The position numbers were made by a program, and so were the translations under genes. The notes under the pieces are model-generated. The model worked only from the letters and a program-made list of their open reading frames with translations. It was not told where the DNA came from and did not search any database. A stretch of 43,662 nucleotides of DNA from NCBI GenBank assembly GCA_027858295.1, contig JAQICZ010000011.1, forward strand, positions 1 to 43,662. The letters run 5' to 3'. Positions 1,068-34,404 of this stretch are shown in pieces (positions within the stretch are counted from its first letter, which is position 1; each line of letters begins with the position of its first letter). Source of the DNA: Nanobdellota archaeon (GTDB lineage Archaea > Nanobdellota > Nanobdellia > Pacearchaeales > GW2011-AR1).

Positions 1068-2006
1068 ATGTTGGGCATAAAAGATAAAAAGATACTTTAT
1101 CAGCTAGACCTTAATTCAAGGCAATCAATAAATCAAATAGCGAAAAAAGTAGGCCTAAGTAAAGACATAGTAAACTACAGACTAAAAAAATTAGAACAAG
1201 ATAATTTTATACAGGGCTATCAAACAATAATTGACTTCCAAAAACTAGGATACATAACAGTAAGAACAAGGATGACTTTGGTGGATACATCTCCCCAAAA
1301 AGAAAAAGAAATAATTGATTTCTTAATAAAAGAAAAGCAAGTTTTTTTTATTTTGGAACTTGAAGGGACAGAATTAACTTACGGGCTAATGATTAAAGAG
1401 CTCTCAGAATTGAATGACTTCTATGAAAAATTTGAATCAAGGTTCAAAGAATTTCTATCAAACAAAAAATTCGCAATCTACTCAGATCTTTATCATTTTA
1501 GCCGTTCCTACATAGAAAAATCAAAAGAAAAGAATACAATAATAATAAAACAGAATAAAGAAGAAGGGGTAGATAAATTTGATTTAGATATTCTAAAGAT
1601 TCTCTCTAAAAATGCAAGAACAACAACAATGGAAATAGCAACAATTCTTGAGACGCCAGCCACAACAGTGGCTCACAGAATAAAAAGACTAGAAGAAAAA
1701 AAGATAATCCTCGGCTACGGGTTATTATTCAATTTTAACAAATTAAGCTACAGTTACTTTAGAGTCAATTTAGAATTGAGAGATATATCAAATATAAAGA
1801 AAATAATAAACTACTGCGAATTAAACGAAAATATAATATACGCGATGAAGACCCTCGGAGGCTCAGACCTAGAAATATATTTTGAATCAACACAAGAAAC
1901 CTTTTTAGAATCAATGAAACAGATAAGAAAACAATTCCCAGAAATAAGAAGTTGGGATTATAATATATTAAAAAAATACCATAAATTTAATTATTTCTTT
2001 GGGTAA
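1068..2006 (+). CDS. tandem-domain Lrp/AsnC family transcriptional regulator
   Basis: The 312-residue protein is two Lrp/AsnC modules in series; a normal family member is about 150 residues. Module 1 has a winged HTH at about residues 5-55 (LDLNSRQSINQIAKKVGLSK) followed by a RAM-like alpha/beta region to about 150. A linker then leads to a second HTH at about 172-215 (ARTTTMEIATILETPATTVA) and a second RAM-like region to the C-terminus. Such proteins act as DNA-binding regulators that sense amino acids or related ligands. With two HTHs on one chain, a monomer could act like the usual dimer. The ATG follows a TATA box by about 26 bp (leaderless). The palindromes around that box suggest autoregulation. 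Its targets are unknown. Confidence 0.85.
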   Translation: MLGIKDKKILYQLDLNSRQSINQIAKKVGLSKDIVNYRLKKLEQDNFIQGYQTIIDFQKLGYITVRTRMTLVDTSPQKEKEIIDFLIKEKQVFFILELEGTELTYGLMIKELSELNDFYEKFESRFKEFLSNKKFAIYSDLYHFSRSYIEKSKEKNTIIIKQNKEEGVDKFDLDILKILSKNARTTTMEIATILETPATTVAHRIKRLEEKKIILGYGLLFNFNKLSYSYFRVNLELRDISNIKKIINYCELNENIIYAMKTLGGSDLEIYFESTQETFLESMKQIRKQFPEIRSWDYNILKKYHKFNYFFG

Positions 2007-2113
2007 TTATCTATTAATTTTTTTATAGACCCCCTACAAATCGCAGTCAACTCATAGCTTGATCTGTAATAAGTGATATAATTTACTAATCCACCCTAAC
2101 TAAAAAACGGTTT

Positions 2114-2520
2114 TTATTGATACTTCTTTGTCGCTTCAATCTCATCTTCTTTTGAAACAAAAGAATAATTACAAAATTTATATCTATCTTTATTAGTTGA
2201 AGGATGATTCACACAATCATCTAAAATCCTCGCAGCTCTAATCCAATCTTCAGAAAAATTCATTTTCTCCAACTCACTAAAATTCCCATAGACTTACCTC
2301 TTATCTAAAATAGTTCCATTAGGAAAACTAATTCTATATGGAATATATGCTCCACCCTTCCCAGTCAATAAAGAACCACTATTATAATCCGCAAGCCAAG
2401 AGAATCCATTTCCTTCTAAAAGTCAATAGTTTTTTCATAATTATTATTTCCCAAAAATATTCTTGTTTGAGAGGTAAGGCTTTCTTTCGGAAATCCAGGA
2501 ATTGATAATTGTTTATCCAT
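2114..2520 (-). pseudogene. frameshifted hypothetical protein gene, about 135 codons
   Basis: Reading leftward from ATG at 2520 gives MDKQLSIPGFPKESLTSQTR and ends at TAG (2416-2418). Adding one T to the adjacent T run restores a frame reading LEGNGFSWLADYNSGSLLTG. That frame continues to a second in-frame TAA at 2294-2296, then (NFSELEKMNFSEDWIRAARI) to a natural stop at 2114. The residue pattern is protein-like throughout, so this is one gene broken by a frameshift and a nonsense codon. I do not recognise its family. The interval 2007-2113 between it and lrp holds only a T-rich terminator-like run (2011-2022). Confidence 0.6.
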
Positions 2521-2605
2521 TGTCATAATAAATTATACAATTAATTAGACAAATTATAATAGTCATCACAGTATATAGTTTAATTATTACCGAAATCTAA
2601 AAATA

Positions 2606-2875
2606 TTAATAATTTAGAGTATATTGCCTAGCCAGAGATTTAATATCATTATAATCTTTTCTTCCTGGCTTTTCAACTTTATAATAAAAAGATAATATTT
2701 CCTTGGGGCATAAAGACTGAGATAGATCTTCAAGAATAAGTTGATAGTTTTTTTTGTCCTTAGAGCCTAAAATACCTTTTTCGGCCATTTCATGATACTT
2801 TTTATTTTTCCAATTTTTACTATCTCTCTCTTCCTTGTCTTTCAATTTTGTGACTAGCCTTGAACCTTTTGACAT
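2606..2875 (-). CDS. small basic hypothetical protein, 89 aa
   Basis: Highly charged 89-residue protein (MSKGSRLVTKLKDKEERDSK) with a C-terminal part rich in aromatic residues. No recognised domain, signal peptide or membrane segment. A TATA-like TATAAATTTTTAAAA lies 25-40 bp upstream of the ATG. The same promoter-like block recurs at about 2986-3005, suggesting local duplication. Coding status is supported by an unbroken frame, a promoter in the usual place and compositional likeness to neighbours, not by homology. Confidence 0.5.
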   Translation of the reverse strand: MSKGSRLVTKLKDKEERDSKNWKNKKYHEMAEKGILGSKDKKNYQLILEDLSQSLCPKEILSFYYKVEKPGRKDYNDIKSLARQYTLNY

Positions 2876-2929
2876 AGATGATTATGAAAAATAGCCTTTT
2901 TAAAAATTTATATTCTAGGCATCACCCCA

Positions 2930-2973
2930 TATGTCCGCAGCGCAGCGAATAATTAATTGTCTTGAAAATAATC
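2930..2973 (-). repeat. dispersed GC-rich 3' element, copy a
   Basis: Carries GCAGCGCAGCGAATAATTAA, the core of the dispersed family. It lies downstream of the minus-strand gene 3131-3481 and upstream of gene 2606-2875. Confidence 0.6.
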
Positions 2974-3044
2974 TGGGAAAACAATCCTTTTAAAAATTTA
3001 TATCCTTCACCCCAACAATTTTGAATTATTTTTGAGCTAAAATG

Positions 3045-27278: not shown

Positions 27279-27869
27279 TTATTTATTCAGTTCTTTAATT
27301 TTCTTCTTCAAATCTTTCTTCAATTTAGGAGCAATCTTTTTCCATTCAGACTTTAGGAGTCCATAAATATTCATATCAACTAACTTCTTTGAGATAGTCA
27401 TTTCGTGTGCTTTCCGTTTTGTTCCTTCTAGTTTATAGCCAAAGGCTCTTTGAAAGCTATTCGATGCTTTATTAGGAGCGATAACTTCTGATTCAAGTCT
27501 ATGTAGATTCATTTTAGTAAATGCAAAATCAAGTAATATAATTTTAGCTTCAGTAGCATAAGAATTATTTCTATGTATAATATCAATTGCAGAATATGTT
27601 TTTGCAGTTCCATCAATTTTGCCGGTCCCAAAGACCCCAATTATTCCAATTGGTTTTTTAGTAGATTTTAATTCAACAATAAAGCGATAACTTTCCTTAC
27701 CCCATTGCTTCAAGCTCATAGTAATCCACTCTTTTGCATATTTTTGTTTGTATGGGAAGGGTGCAACAAAATCTTCAATAGTTTTCTTCTCTGAAAATAA
27801 TTCAAACATAAATTTCCAATCTCCTTCTCTCGGCTTCCTCAAAATCAACCTCTCAGTTTCCAATTTCAT
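27279..27869 (-). CDS. GNAT family (RimJ/RimL-type) N-acetyltransferase
   Basis: About 196 residues: MKLETERLILRKPREGDWKF at the start is the RimL/RimJ hallmark. The acceptor region includes FIVELKSTKKPIGIIGVFGT, then the pyrophosphate-loop region YSAIDIIHRNNSYATEAKII and the C-terminal HRLESEVIAPNKASNSFQRA with FGYKLEG. Acetylates an amino group of a protein or small molecule using acetyl-CoA; substrate unknown. The ATG at 27869 is preferred over 27884 because TTTATATT (27891-27898) is 26 bp before it. It is a paralogue of the next gene (28094-28684). Confidence 0.85.
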   Translation of the reverse strand: MKLETERLILRKPREGDWKFMFELFSEKKTIEDFVAPFPYKQKYAKEWITMSLKQWGKESYRFIVELKSTKKPIGIIGVFGTGKIDGTAKTYSAIDIIHRNNSYATEAKIILLDFAFTKMNLHRLESEVIAPNKASNSFQRAFGYKLEGTKRKAHEMTISKKLVDMNIYGLLKSEWKKIAPKLKKDLKKKIKELNK

Positions 27870-28037
27870 GAAAATTAAACCCAATCAAATAATATAAACC
27901 TAACTCTCAAAAATCCTCCAACAATACTACCACGTCATCTCCAACCAACTATGCCCCCATACAAAAGTTCATAAAATCGTTTTCCAATCGATTTTAATTG
28001 TCAGAATTTTTGGCACACCATATTCTAAAGTGAATGG

Positions 28038-28092
28038 CTGTACGGAGTCGATAATGTTATGCCCTAATAACGAGCTTTGGCGAGCAATTTTA
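28038..28092 (-). repeat. dispersed GC-rich 3' element, copy i
   Basis: TACGGAGTCGATAATGTTAT is followed by GCCCTAATAACGAGCTTTGG. It begins 2 bp after the stop of gene 28094. The hairpin part is the GGAGTC type also seen at 3664-3674. Confidence 0.6.
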
Positions 28093-28093
28093 G

Positions 28094-28684
28094 TTATCCC
28101 TTTAATTTATCAATCTTTTTCTTCAAATCTTTCTTCAATCCAGGAGCAACCTTTTTCCATTCCGGTTTCAAAATTCCATATAGGTTCATATCAGTATATT
28201 TTTTTGTGTAAGGATTTAGATTCTCTTTTCTTTTCATCCCCTCAAAAGTTATTCCAAATTTTGCTTGCATATTTATAGACGGTTTGTTAAATGTGGCAAC
28301 TTCTGATTTTAATTTTCTTAATCCTAAGTCATTAAAACAAAAATCATGAATCGCAATTTTAGCTTCCGTTAAATAATATTTTCTTCTATATCTTTTAAAA
28401 ATCCAAGAAGAGAGATATCCTGTTTTATTATAATAATCAATATTTTTCACTCCAGATAATCCAATCACCTTGCCAGTCTTTTTTAGCACTATGATAAACC
28501 AATATCGTTTTTTCTTTTCCCATTCCCTGATACATCTATTTGTTAACTTTTCAAAATAGCCTTCTTTTTCTGGGCATGGCATAAAAAAATCTCTTATCGC
28601 AATAGTATCATTATTCTTTTTTAATATTTTTGCATCGCTCTTCCTCGGCTTCCTCAAAATCAATCTTTCAGTTTCTAGTCTCAT
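28094..28684 (-). CDS. GNAT family (RimJ/RimL-type) N-acetyltransferase, paralogue
   Basis: 196 residues beginning MRLETERLILRKPRKSDAKI, with GKVIGLSGVKNIDYYNKTGY, YYLTEAKIAIHDFCFNDLGL and RKLKSEVATFNKPS; the same layout as gene 27279-27869 and the same Lys-rich end (LKKDLKKKIDKLKG against LKKDLKKKIKELNK). The tandem copies also share promoter and downstream element, so the whole unit was duplicated. The ATG at 28684 lies 26 bp after TTTATATT (28706-28713). Substrate unknown; sequence divergence suggests distinct substrates. Confidence 0.83.
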   Translation of the reverse strand: MRLETERLILRKPRKSDAKILKKNNDTIAIRDFFMPCPEKEGYFEKLTNRCIREWEKKKRYWFIIVLKKTGKVIGLSGVKNIDYYNKTGYLSSWIFKRYRRKYYLTEAKIAIHDFCFNDLGLRKLKSEVATFNKPSINMQAKFGITFEGMKRKENLNPYTKKYTDMNLYGILKPEWKKVAPGLKKDLKKKIDKLKG

Positions 28685-28766
28685 AACCAAATATGCAAAA
28701 CAAATAATATAAACCTAACTCTCAAAAATCCTCTAATCAAACTTCTCTGTCAATCAAGAATATCCC

Positions 28767-31518: not shown

Positions 31519-32124
31519 CTAAAAGGGAGTAGAATCTTCATCAAAATCAAGTTCTAATTGTTGCTGACCATCAATTGTCCTATAAGCTCCTTTTAGTATG
31601 CTTAATCTAACTTTCGAAGATCCTGTTTCATCAGTAACCAATGCATTTGTTAATATTTTTTCAATATCTGAAGGCTTAATTCTTCCAATATTTCCTCGTA
31701 CTCGGTTTTCCCATAATCTTGGAACATCTGTCTCTACACCCTCATATAACATCAAATCATCTATTGTGTTATATGTGTTTTTACAAAACTCTGTTTGAGG
31801 ATTTAGCTTTTTCAAATTCCCAGAATAGGTCCCAATCATTTTTTGAAAGGGGGATAATTTGTATTTACTCTTTTGCAATAATTCATAAAATTTCAAAGAA
31901 TAGCAATTATTCGTAGGATGAAATTCCAAATATTTGAAATTCGCATCATCCTTTTTCCCAATAATAATTTTTGTTCTATTTATGTCTATGGGAGAGAGTC
32001 CATAGTCGGGGTCATCTTCCACAAAGCCATAAAAATATTTATTATCTAGAAATTTTATATTTCCCTTAAATGCTTCTTCCTGATAATTTTTCCTATTTCC
32101 AGTGATTCTTAATTCTCCACTCAT
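31519..32124 (-). CDS. hypothetical protein, 201 aa
   Basis: The start at 32124 (MSGELRITGNRKNYQEEAFK) is chosen because a TATA-like TTTTAAATTAAATA lies about 26 bp upstream; the frame extends 45 bp further through this promoter. The N-terminal half looks beta-rich (GNIKFLDNKYFYGFVEDDPD, INRTKIIIGKKDD), the C-terminal half helical, ending in an acidic tail (QQQLELDFDEDSTPF). No recognised family. It lies on the same strand downstream of the nuclease-like and glycosylase-like genes, each with its own promoter; a functional link is possible but untested. Confidence 0.6.
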   Translation of the reverse strand: MSGELRITGNRKNYQEEAFKGNIKFLDNKYFYGFVEDDPDYGLSPIDINRTKIIIGKKDDANFKYLEFHPTNNCYSLKFYELLQKSKYKLSPFQKMIGTYSGNLKKLNPQTEFCKNTYNTIDDLMLYEGVETDVPRLWENRVRGNIGRIKPSDIEKILTNALVTDETGSSKVRLSILKGAYRTIDGQQQLELDFDEDSTPF

Positions 32125-32274
32125 AGTTAGAAATAGGATATTTAATTTAAAAGAAAACAACGTCTCCAAAGTAGTGTTCCTAATGTATATGTTAAAATGA
32201 ATATTGCAATTAAAGCACAGGTCTAATCCAAGTAAGAAAGATTGTTAATTTATAATTATCAAATTGATTGTAAT

Positions 32275-33339
32275 CTAAAACAGAACAAACCCATCAATAG
32301 GTTCAAGTCCAGCTTCTTTTAATTGTTTGAGAGATTCCTCCCATGTTTCAATTCCAACTTCTTCAAACAATGAGCCAATCAATCCTTCAGCATTAAATTT
32401 ATTAGATTGAATTCTTCCAAATAAATCAGGGTCCAATTTATCATAATGCTCTTTGATGTAATTCTCATCTTTTGCCATTTTAGCATATTCCAATACAAAG
32501 TTCGTAGGTAAATCTACACAATTAGAAACCCTCTCCTGTATTTGAGCCTTAGCAAGTTCAGGATTTTTATCCTCAATTATTAATATTGGAAATTGTTCAA
32601 TCTTGCTTTTGTTTACTTTCATCCCTTTTGAGATTTTAGTTTTTCTAATAATATAATCTTCAGGGTTCATTCCTAGATTTGTAAGTGTTTCTTCTGGATT
32701 TAACATAATAGAGTTGATAGCTTTTGACTTGAATCTTGTTAGTTTTACATATGCCTCACCGTCATATCTTGATGTTAAATCCGAGTTGGAAGCGTAAGCT
32801 TGAAAAACCACACTAAGCGGCAATGATAGTCCGTATATGGTTTTCTTTCCTAAATCTGTAACAAGATTTTCTAACGGCAAATGAGAATAGTTCTTTTCAA
32901 GCTTATCTACAGCATGACGAAAGATATCAAACCTAATTTCTTTCCCATGTTTTTGATTGTTAAGGTGAATATATTTAGCAATTTGGGTGTCTACTAACTT
33001 TAGACATTCACTTCTATTTACCCCTTTGCTCTCTCGAAAATATTTTTTAGATGTGACATCTGGCTCAGAAGTAGCTATACTTTCAAGAGAATTATTTGAG
33101 CAATCGAAATTCTGCTGAGCTTTTATATCACCTCCATATAATCGTTTTGTAAATCTTTCATAAAAATTCCCAAGCTTGACCTTAATTCCCTCTTCTTTTT
33201 GCATCTTCCCAGGCGTAAACCCAAAAAGCGATTGTTGGAAGGGATAGGAAATGGTGGTGCTCTTAGCTCTAAGGGCACGACCTTCATAGTAATCATTCAT
33301 CTCAGAATTGTTAGCACTAAAGTCGTTTCTTTTCGCCAT
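32275..33339 (-). CDS. PD-(D/E)xK nuclease-like protein
   Basis: 354 residues. The segment TSEPDVTSKKYFRESKGV (Asp94, Glu103, Lys105 from this start) has the PD-x8-ExK spacing of restriction-endonuclease-like folds, preceded by KVKLGNFYERFTKRLYGGD, a YE-containing helix common at the start of such domains. The remainder (about 115-354) is helical, with FDIFRHAVDKLEKNYSHLPL and IIRKTKISKGMKVNKSK, and shows no known domain. ATG 33339 follows TTTTAAAG by about 25 bp (leaderless). Next upstream on the same strand is an endonuclease III-like glycosylase, suggesting a DNA repair or defence pair. Nuclease activity is inferred from the motif only. Confidence 0.5.
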   Translation of the reverse strand: MAKRNDFSANNSEMNDYYEGRALRAKSTTISYPFQQSLFGFTPGKMQKEEGIKVKLGNFYERFTKRLYGGDIKAQQNFDCSNNSLESIATSEPDVTSKKYFRESKGVNRSECLKLVDTQIAKYIHLNNQKHGKEIRFDIFRHAVDKLEKNYSHLPLENLVTDLGKKTIYGLSLPLSVVFQAYASNSDLTSRYDGEAYVKLTRFKSKAINSIMLNPEETLTNLGMNPEDYIIRKTKISKGMKVNKSKIEQFPILIIEDKNPELAKAQIQERVSNCVDLPTNFVLEYAKMAKDENYIKEHYDKLDPDLFGRIQSNKFNAEGLIGSLFEEVGIETWEESLKQLKEAGLEPIDGFVLF

Positions 33340-33432
33340 AAAGCACAAATCCTCTTATCTTTAAAAGTGATTGTTATACTCAAAAGCATATATCGTAAAG
33401 TTCCTTGTATTCGAAGTATAAGATAATAATAA

Positions 33433-34404
33433 TTAAAATAATTTAAGCTGATACTTGTCACCTTTTCTAACATCAACTTTTCGTCCTTTTTCATAAATTG
33501 TAAAAGTTCCATTTTTACTAGTTTTCGGGACATTCTTACAGATTGACTCTAATGAGCAATTTACTTCACAGTGTCTCAAGTCCTGCTTCGCACAAACCTC
33601 TGACCCAATAGTCCAAAGCGCATGGTCCATACTAATCATCCCCTGATAAGATAATCCTTTATCTTGATAATATTTAAGATATTCTTGTTCAAGGAGTTTT
33701 ACACCATATCCATGATGCATCTTTTCATTTTTTGTGGTAACTGCCCCAATTGATATTGGAATCCTTTCTCTATGAACATCAATCTTCACTAAAGCATTCT
33801 CCGGGTCAATAGGCAAGGAAATCTCTCTAGATATAACTTCACTAATATATAAATTTGCAAGTCCAGTTCCATATTTATCAAATTCCATAATATTTTTCCT
33901 TGATTCTTCAACGCTATTATTATGGATTAAATTTCGAGGGTCACCATCATATTCAGCAATCAATTTTTTCGCATTATCCTGATATGCCTGTTCGATGGAT
34001 GATTCGTTTGGGTGTAAAAAGGAATAACTGAACCCTTCCCTTAGTCCTTGCTTGACTTCATCCTCGCTACGCTGCACTACTTCTTTAGGAAAAAACATCC
34101 ATCTAAGATTTTTATCTTTCCAAGCATTTAGTGCACTTTTCGCTAAGACAGAAGAATGTGATCGCCTATCGCAAAAAGTTCTCGACCACAACCAAAGCCC
34201 AGCTTCAAAAGGCATCTTTACCTGGTTCTGTTCTGGTAAATATTCAAATTCATTTGGCAGATTATACTGAGGTAAAAATTTCTTGTGGTCTTGACGAAAA
34301 AGACCTTCTTTGTTCTGAATCTGTTCAAATACAGAATCTAGGGCTTTTCTGAAAATCACTCTATTAAAATTAAAAGTATTCATTGACATAAAAAATTCAA
34401 ACAT
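33433..34404 (-). CDS. HhH-GPD/endonuclease III-like DNA glycosylase with Fe-S cluster motif
   Basis: 323 residues. Around 175-215 the sequence resembles the HhH-GPD core: KYGTGLANLYISEVISREIS (hairpin-like GTGLANL), then PENALVKIDVHRERIPISIG, where Asp in KIDVHR aligns with the catalytic Asp of VDTHVxR in EndoIII/MutY. The C-terminal cysteines C271-x7-C279-x3-C283-x5-C289, after HALWTIGSEV, match the EndoIII [4Fe-4S] loop (Cx6Cx2Cx5C) with two 1-residue insertions. The N-terminal ~150 residues are family-specific and Trp/aromatic rich. It probably excises a modified or mismatched base; specificity unknown. Met6 or Met8 are alternative starts. Neighbour of a nuclease-like gene. Confidence 0.6.
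   Translation of the reverse strand: MFEFFMSMNTFNFNRVIFRKALDSVFEQIQNKEGLFRQDHKKFLPQYNLPNEFEYLPEQNQVKMPFEAGLWLWSRTFCDRRSHSSVLAKSALNAWKDKNLRWMFFPKEVVQRSEDEVKQGLREGFSYSFLHPNESSIEQAYQDNAKKLIAEYDGDPRNLIHNNSVEESRKNIMEFDKYGTGLANLYISEVISREISLPIDPENALVKIDVHRERIPISIGAVTTKNEKMHHGYGVKLLEQEYLKYYQDKGLSYQGMISMDHALWTIGSEVCAKQDLRHCEVNCSLESICKNVPKTSKNGTFTIYEKGRKVDVRKGDKYQLKLF

What the first reader, a model, noticed from the sequence alone, without database searches (positions are those of the whole stretch)
31519..34404. Glycosylase plus PD-(D/E)xK nuclease gene pair: possible repair or defence module
An EndoIII-like protein with an altered Fe-S cysteine spacing and a large unfamiliar N-terminal domain is encoded directly upstream of a PD-ExK nuclease-like protein, with a third unknown gene behind them. 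Glycosylases that attack modified phage DNA and glycosylase-type restriction enzymes are known. A glycosylase producing abasic sites next to a nuclease could form a base-excision restriction system or a lineage-specific repair pathway. No methyltransferase is present.
Basis: partly seen in the sequence, partly recalled or inferred. Interest (0 to 1): 0.7.

Follow-up and report, generated by a model that had tools for sequence, protein, structure and literature searches.

The report
Archaeal glycosylase-nuclease DNA-processing gene pair
In tiny, poorly studied archaea, a previously undescribed iron-sulfur DNA-glycosylase-like enzyme sits beside a previously undescribed nuclease that in other genomes sits beside RNase HII, which points to a lineage-specific way of removing damaged or foreign nucleotides from DNA.

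Summary
Gene A (33433-34404, minus) is a helix-hairpin-helix glycosylase with an invariant catalytic Asp and an Fe-S loop of unusual spacing (C-x7-C-x3-C-x5-C). Gene B (32275-33348, minus) belongs to a new PD-(D/E)xK family (D97, E106, K108 in 30/30; QxxxY). Neither has a convincing Pfam, NCBIfam, PADLOC or PHROG match. Across 200 genomes of the order, A has 8 clear homologues and 7 lie beside a B homologue, mostly found only by looking next to A. Without A, B often lies beside RNase HII (8 loci). B splits into two clades; the window's B is from the RNase HII clade, so A has paired with both. Glycosylases and a radical-SAM neighbour end in the PCNA-box form that RNase HII carries in this clade. 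B proteins end in an acidic ...PF tail resembling bacterial SSB (22/34 against 1/583 background ORFs; that one is the window's third gene). I favour a PCNA-tethered base-excision repair module for guanine-type lesions over restriction, though the patchy, fast-evolving distribution leaves defence open. Substrate and nuclease polarity are untested.

The parts
33433..34404 (-). Gene A: HhH Fe-S glycosylase-like protein, 323 aa
   Evidence: AF2 model plus Foldseek to DUF2419/MutY/EndoIII; profile to SsOgg E 1.1e-4
33844..33885 (-). Helix-hairpin-helix motif EFDKYGTGLANLYI (residues 174-187); Gly181 where lyases have the catalytic Lys
   Evidence: alignment A5
33778..33780 (-). Catalytic Asp D209 (KIDVHR)
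   Evidence: 14/14 conserved; aligns with the Asp of SsOgg IIDRH and Pa-AGOG PVDYR
33613..33627 (-). D260-x3-W264, equivalent of Asp218/Trp222 of Pa-AGOG (8-oxoG binding)
   Evidence: profile alignment to Pa-AGOG LDTLLW and SsOgg LDLFIW; residue roles from PMC3397491
33538..33594 (-). Four-Cys Fe-S loop C-x7-C-x3-C-x5-C (residues 271-289)
33436..33450 (-). C-terminal QLKLF, PCNA-box-like
   Evidence: same form as RNase HII tails of the clade; background 7/466
32275..33348 (-). Gene B: PD-(D/E)xK nuclease of a new family, clade NUC-II, 357 aa
33157..33159 (-). E64 of the FYE motif (first helix)
   Evidence: 23/30
33025..33060 (-). Catalytic D97...E106-x-K108
   Evidence: 30/30 each
32971..32985 (-). 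QxxxY motif Q122-Y126
   Evidence: 29/30 and 26/30
32278..32295 (-). Tail DGFVLF, variant of the family's acidic ...PF tail
   Evidence: low model confidence at 351-357
31519..32169 (-). Gene C: orphan 216 aa protein
   Evidence: no relative in 180 order genomes; not a B homologue by profile
31522..31563 (-). Tail of gene C: PCNA-box-like QQLELDF followed by DEDSTPF
   Evidence: the only background ORF of 583 ending in PF

Best explanation
Genes A and B form a base-excision module of these DPANN archaea. Shown or strongly supported by computation: A has the HhH glycosylase fold with its catalytic Asp and an Fe-S loop; B has the PD-(D/E)xK active-site motif; the two are evolutionarily linked. 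Inferred: A docks on PCNA through its C-terminal QxxLF motif, scans DNA, flips out a guanine-type lesion (D-x3-W pocket like AGOG/OGG2) and cuts the glycosidic bond. The window's A lacks the lyase Lys, so it should leave an intact abasic site. B, a QxxxY-type PD-(D/E)xK nuclease, then incises or resects the strand, as its RNase HII-linked relatives would do after RNase HII has nicked at a ribonucleotide. B's acidic ...PF tail is a docking peptide for an unknown partner. Polymerase and ligase fill in. Repair of the cell's own DNA is preferred over attack on foreign DNA.
For: Fold, motifs and catalytic residues. Adjacency in 7 of 8 A loci. B with RNase HII in 8 loci (7 immediately adjacent, 1 two genes away) but in none of 29 RNase HII loci from genomes not chosen for that link. 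Partner exchange: the window's B lies in the RNase HII clade, the other A-linked B proteins in a second clade, split 100/100; the clades are homologous, hhalign probability 99, E 3e-18. PCNA-box tails: RNase HII of the clade ends in Q-x-x-L in 27/28, 23 of them followed by F or Y, including the host's own NQATLF; a PolB ends QKSLGDF; A proteins end QLKLF, QLRLF, QLTLPF, QGVLF, QMRLF, QNNLF. Radical-SAM neighbour beside A in three loci, also PCNA-box tailed. GC of A and B (0.35, 0.34) is that of the window (0.34).
Against: Only about 4% of order genomes have A and 6-9% have B; several copies are interrupted by stops or frameshifts (L036, L039, L054), B is tandemly amplified in one family, and identity to the window proteins is only about 13-37%: unusual for housekeeping repair. 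More distant class-level A relatives have no B beside them. Fold support for B is weak. Outer relatives of A match the queuosine-salvage family (E 4.8e-7) and the best fold match is DUF2419, so a non-DNA substrate is possible. The PF tail has no known partner: no bacterial-type SSB was found in 20 relatives.
Confidence: 0.5

Rival explanations
1. Antiviral base-excision defence: A removes a modified base (for example a 7-deazaguanine or other hypermodified base) from viral DNA and B cuts at the abasic site. No methyltransferase is needed because the host lacks the modified base, as with Brig1.
For: Patchy, fast-evolving, sometimes broken or tandem genes; R-M genes near B in L044 and about 8 kb from the pair in L007; A is distantly related to enzymes that cut a 7-deazaguanine nucleotide; defence glycosylases exist (PMC11078745).
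Against: No PADLOC, phage or plasmid match; neighbours are mostly housekeeping genes; PCNA-box tails and alternation with RNase HII suggest replication-linked repair.
Confidence: 0.22
2. The B family is a selfish or homing-like endonuclease that settles beside conserved genes; A is a passenger or co-mobile gene.
For: B sits at recurring slots beside RNase HII, AlaRS/LeuRS, TrpRS/ThrRS and gatB genes; LAGLIDADG genes lie just upstream of B in L046 and L051; tandem copies and decayed copies.
Against: Pairing with two lesion-type enzymes and the conserved C-terminal tail are not expected of a homing enzyme; no empty-site or target-site evidence was obtained.
Confidence: 0.13
3. A acts on a modified nucleoside or RNA (queuosine/archaeosine-like salvage), not on DNA, and B processes RNA or tRNA.
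For: Best fold match DUF2419; two of 14 aligned relatives match Pfam Q_salvage, best E 4.8e-7; tRNA-synthetase neighbours.
Against: The window's clade keeps a canonical HhH and the AGOG-like KxDxH...DxxxW motif, an Fe-S loop and a PCNA-box-like tail; Q_salvage does not match the window protein.
Confidence: 0.12

Closest known systems
AGOG / OGG2 archaeal 8-oxoguanine DNA glycosylases
   Same: Catalytic Asp region and D-x3-W base-binding region align
   Different: Gene A adds an Fe-S loop and a PCNA-box-like tail and lacks the catalytic Lys; no Pfam AGOG match for the window protein
EndoIII / MutY Fe-S HhH glycosylases
   Same: Fold match and four-Cys loop
   Different: Cys spacing 7-3-5 instead of 6-2-5; no Pfam HhH-GPD match
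DUF2419 / Qng1 queuosine salvage glycosidase
   Same: Best Foldseek match; outer relatives match the family
   Different: The window's clade keeps a canonical HhH; not matched by the Pfam model
RecB/Cas4-type and Hjc-type PD-(D/E)xK nucleases
   Same: PD...ExK and QxxxY (QxxxY as a RecB/Cas4 trait is from general knowledge); weak profile match to an Hjc-type protein
   Different: No family match; separate C-terminal half and ...PF tail; no cysteine module as in Cas4
Brig1 anti-phage DNA glycosylase
   Same: Would work alike if A attacks modified viral DNA
   Different: No relationship was tested or shown; the paper passages read mention no B-like nuclease partner
Bacterial SSB C-terminal peptide DDDIPF
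   Same: Acidic residues followed by Pro-Phe at the extreme C-terminus
   Different: Here it is carried by nucleases; no bacterial SSB in the relatives searched

Membership tests
HhH-GPD DNA glycosylase superfamily | HhH glycosylase fold | tested here: met
   Foldseek E 6.5e-5 to 8e-4, profile E 1.1e-4
HhH-GPD DNA glycosylase superfamily | catalytic Asp after the HhH | tested here: met
   D209 in 14/14
HhH-GPD DNA glycosylase superfamily | Pfam HhH-GPD score over cut-off | tested here: not met
   one relative only, E 0.0069
Endonuclease III family | C-x6-C-x2-C-x5-C cluster | tested here: not met
   spacing is 7-3-5
Endonuclease III family | catalytic Lys in the HhH | tested here: not met
   Gly181 at that position
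AGOG | Pfam AGOG match | tested here: not met
   window protein none; a relative E 0.041
AGOG | Asp and Trp of the 8-oxoG pocket | tested here: met
   D260, W264 align with Asp218, Trp222; D260 varies among relatives
Queuosine salvage (DUF2419) | Pfam Q_salvage match | tested here: not met
   window protein none at E 0.05; 2 of 14 aligned relatives match
PD-(D/E)xK nuclease superfamily | PD...ExK active-site residues | tested here: met
   30/30 for D, E, K
PD-(D/E)xK nuclease superfamily | fold match | tested here: inconclusive
   HincII/DpnI top the list but E about 0.1, probability about 0.2
RecB/Cas4 nucleases | QxxxY motif | tested here: met
   29/30 and 26/30
RecB/Cas4 nucleases | Pfam match to that family | tested here: not met
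PCNA clients | binds PCNA | not testable with these tools
   only motif and tail statistics
Base-excision restriction (R.PabI type) | partner methyltransferase | tested here: not met
   none among window ORFs; no consistent one in related loci
Base-excision restriction (R.PabI type) | HALFPIPE fold | tested here: not met
   model matches HhH folds
Brig1-type defence | excises a modified phage base and protects cells | not testable with these tools
   needs experiment

The most novel reading that the evidence does not exclude
A new two- or three-part nucleic-acid excision system in DPANN archaea in which one nuclease family, carrying an SSB-like C-terminal peptide, is shared between different lesion-initiating enzymes (an Fe-S guanine-type or 7-deazaguanine glycosylase, or RNase HII), used either as an undescribed long-patch repair pathway or as methyltransferase-free restriction of modified viral DNA.
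Probability: 0.3. Interest if true: 0.8.

Novelty: new variant of a known kind. Interest (0 to 1): 0.6.

Why it matters
Archaeal repair downstream of glycosylases and RNase HII is poorly known in DPANN. Here are two protein families without annotation, a link that survives partner exchange, and a sharply defined C-terminal peptide on the nuclease. Each makes a direct prediction: substrate (guanine-type lesion), clamp binding, and the nuclease acting at abasic or ribonucleotide nicks. The radical-SAM neighbour suggests a wider set of genes worth testing together.

Tried and rejected
Direct BLASTP of the window's nuclease with the one in G025 gave nothing; homology appeared only with many sequences. 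Gene C as a degenerate B: rejected. P0008 next to A in G018 as a B: rejected. The nuclease-like ORF near the radical-SAM gene in L134 as a B: rejected as homologue, although it ends DDDECPF. Presence of bacterial SSB to explain the PF tail: none in 20 relatives. Tail as a common feature of the host proteome: a pattern search of the host genome found one other credible protein end, DDLPF. Viral, phage and plasmid homologues: none; Foldseek against viral proteins gave nothing significant for B. Structure profile of the radical-SAM protein: no PDB match; its assignment rests on C-x3-C-x2-C-Y in L112 and weak Pfam Radical_SAM matches, E 0.016 and 0.05.

Full report
What is there. The window is a 43.7 kb contig of a DPANN-like archaeal genome (archaeal 16S and 23S rRNA; relatives are recorded as Nanoarchaeota MAGs). 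At 31519-34404 lie three minus-strand ORFs in a row, with a CoA-binding-like gene upstream and divergently placed mre11/rad50-like genes beyond (these names are by sequence appearance). None of the three proteins had a meaningful match in Pfam, NCBIfam, PADLOC or PHROGs.

Gene A is a glycosylase by fold. A 14-sequence AlphaFold model (pLDDT 80.7) matched DUF2419, MutY and EndoIII at E 6.5e-5 to 8e-4, and the family profile found S. solfataricus Ogg at 1.1e-4 with the catalytic Asp aligned. The seven clade members alone align with Pyrobaculum AGOG over the region of the catalytic Asp and of the Asp and Trp that hold 8-oxoguanine in AGOG (E 0.077, so suggestive only; roles of Asp218 and Trp222 from PMC3397491). 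The four cysteines are nearly invariant, with spacing 7-3-5 in the window. The lyase Lys position holds Gly in the window's clade. A second clade has a Lys one position further, so the two clades may differ in lyase activity. Two of the 14 aligned relatives match the queuosine-salvage family; I take them to be the outermost rows.

Gene B is a PD-(D/E)xK nuclease by motif. In 30 relatives D97, E106 and K108 never vary, and Q122/Y126 form a QxxxY motif. Fold comparison is weak, with HincII and DpnI at the top without significance; a profile search gave an Hjc-type protein at E 0.01. I regard nuclease chemistry as likely and the subfamily as new.

The pair is conserved. A profile of three A proteins found 8 strong genomes among 200 of the order, and direct search with B found 13 genomes. 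When I read the neighbourhoods, 7 of the 8 A loci had a B homologue next door, mostly too diverged for direct detection. In six of the seven the genes are convergent; in the window they are co-directional, which argues against a single inherited arrangement. The exception, G018, has an Ogg-HhH-like protein tail to tail with A (Pfam E 0.037).

B has a second partner. In eight loci B is with RNase HII, in seven immediately upstream in the same direction with gaps of -4 to 50 bp. Of 29 RNase HII loci in genomes not chosen for this, none has B nearby. The B tree has two clades at 100/100: one with the other A-linked proteins, the other with all RNase HII-linked proteins and the window's B. Thus A is found with both clades. 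These counts are not independent events, because loci share ancestry.

Tails. RNase HII of the clade ends in Q-x-x-L in 27 of 28, usually followed by F or Y within three residues, and a PolB in L051 ends QKSLGDF, so this is how a PCNA box looks here. A proteins of the pair end QLKLF, QLRLF, QLTLPF, QGVLF, QMRLF or QNNLF. The radical-SAM proteins beside A in L007, L036 and L037 end QPNLF, QMKLF and QQRLFE. In background ORFs the same pattern occurs in 7 of 466, of which only PolB looks real. B proteins end in an acidic ...PF (EVPF, DIPF, DDPF and the like) in 22 of 34 against 1 of 583; the one is gene C, which therefore probably belongs to the module. The form recalls the SSB C-terminal hexapeptide DDDIPF (PMC5872125), but no bacterial SSB was found, so the partner is unknown.

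Mechanism. I propose that A, held on PCNA, excises a guanine-type lesion and that B incises or resects the strand, as B's relatives would act after RNase HII. Fold, motifs and linkage are shown by computation; PCNA binding, substrate, order of steps and B's polarity are inferred. Repair is favoured because of the PCNA-type tails, the RNase HII partner and the absence of defence context, phage homologues and methyltransferase. Defence remains at about one in five: the genes are rare (8 of 200), diverge fast, are broken in some genomes and tandem in others, and R-M genes lie near two loci. A recent survey finds RM and CRISPR-Cas underrepresented in DPANN (PMC12988326), so undescribed defence would not be surprising. 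A homing-like origin of B is a third option, given LAGLIDADG neighbours and recurring slots beside tRNA-synthetase genes.

Membership. A is a member of the HhH glycosylase superfamily by fold, but of no named family: EndoIII fails on spacing and Lys, AGOG and Q_salvage fail on Pfam. B is a PD-(D/E)xK protein of an undescribed family.

Limits. The genomes are fragmented MAGs of about 60-100% completeness; absence and broken frames can be artefacts. The presence of an AP endonuclease in this genome was not checked. Literature was searched only in open-access text.

Noticed in passing
L007:9832-11061, L036:4663-5883, L037:2121-3605, L112:2639-4027, L105:597-2036, L134:5787-7280, L135:4608-6191: A radical-SAM (SplB-like by appearance) family recurs beside A or B or elsewhere in such genomes; three members end in a PCNA-box-like peptide.
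   Followed up: partly
L134:8037-8894: A nuclease-like ORF unrelated to B, downstream of a radical-SAM family member, ends in DDDECPF, the same tail type as B.
   Followed up: partly
L125:1501-1722 and 1927-3003 (G000 contig C3): Two neighbouring unnamed ORFs of the host end in DDLPF and DNDTPI, like the B tail.
   Followed up: partly
L046:5499-6122, L051:2349-2909: LAGLIDADG endonuclease genes lie directly upstream of B.
   Followed up: partly
L038, L039, L045, L052, L053, L054, L103, L104, L106, L107, L101, L102, L105: B loci lie unusually often beside aminoacyl-tRNA synthetase or gatB genes; the same slots hold A plus B in some genomes and B alone in others.
   Followed up: partly
L101:4884-7814, L102:151-2077, L105:9456-11350: Tandem arrays of two or three diverged B genes near gatB.
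   Followed up: no
L044:3-1641: HinP1I-like restriction enzyme with C5 methyltransferase close to an RNase HII-B pair.
   Followed up: no
L115:5802-6770, L116:2278-3288, L117:5489-6367: Distant A relatives resembling queuosine-salvage proteins carry extra cysteines at the Fe-S position; possibly an Fe-S form of that family in archaea.
   Followed up: partly
L006:15612-16400: In G018 the partner of A is replaced by an Ogg-HhH-like protein with a QMNLF peptide near its end, plus a small unknown gene.
   Followed up: partly
window 27279-28690: Two tandem paralogous acetyltransferase-like genes.
   Followed up: no
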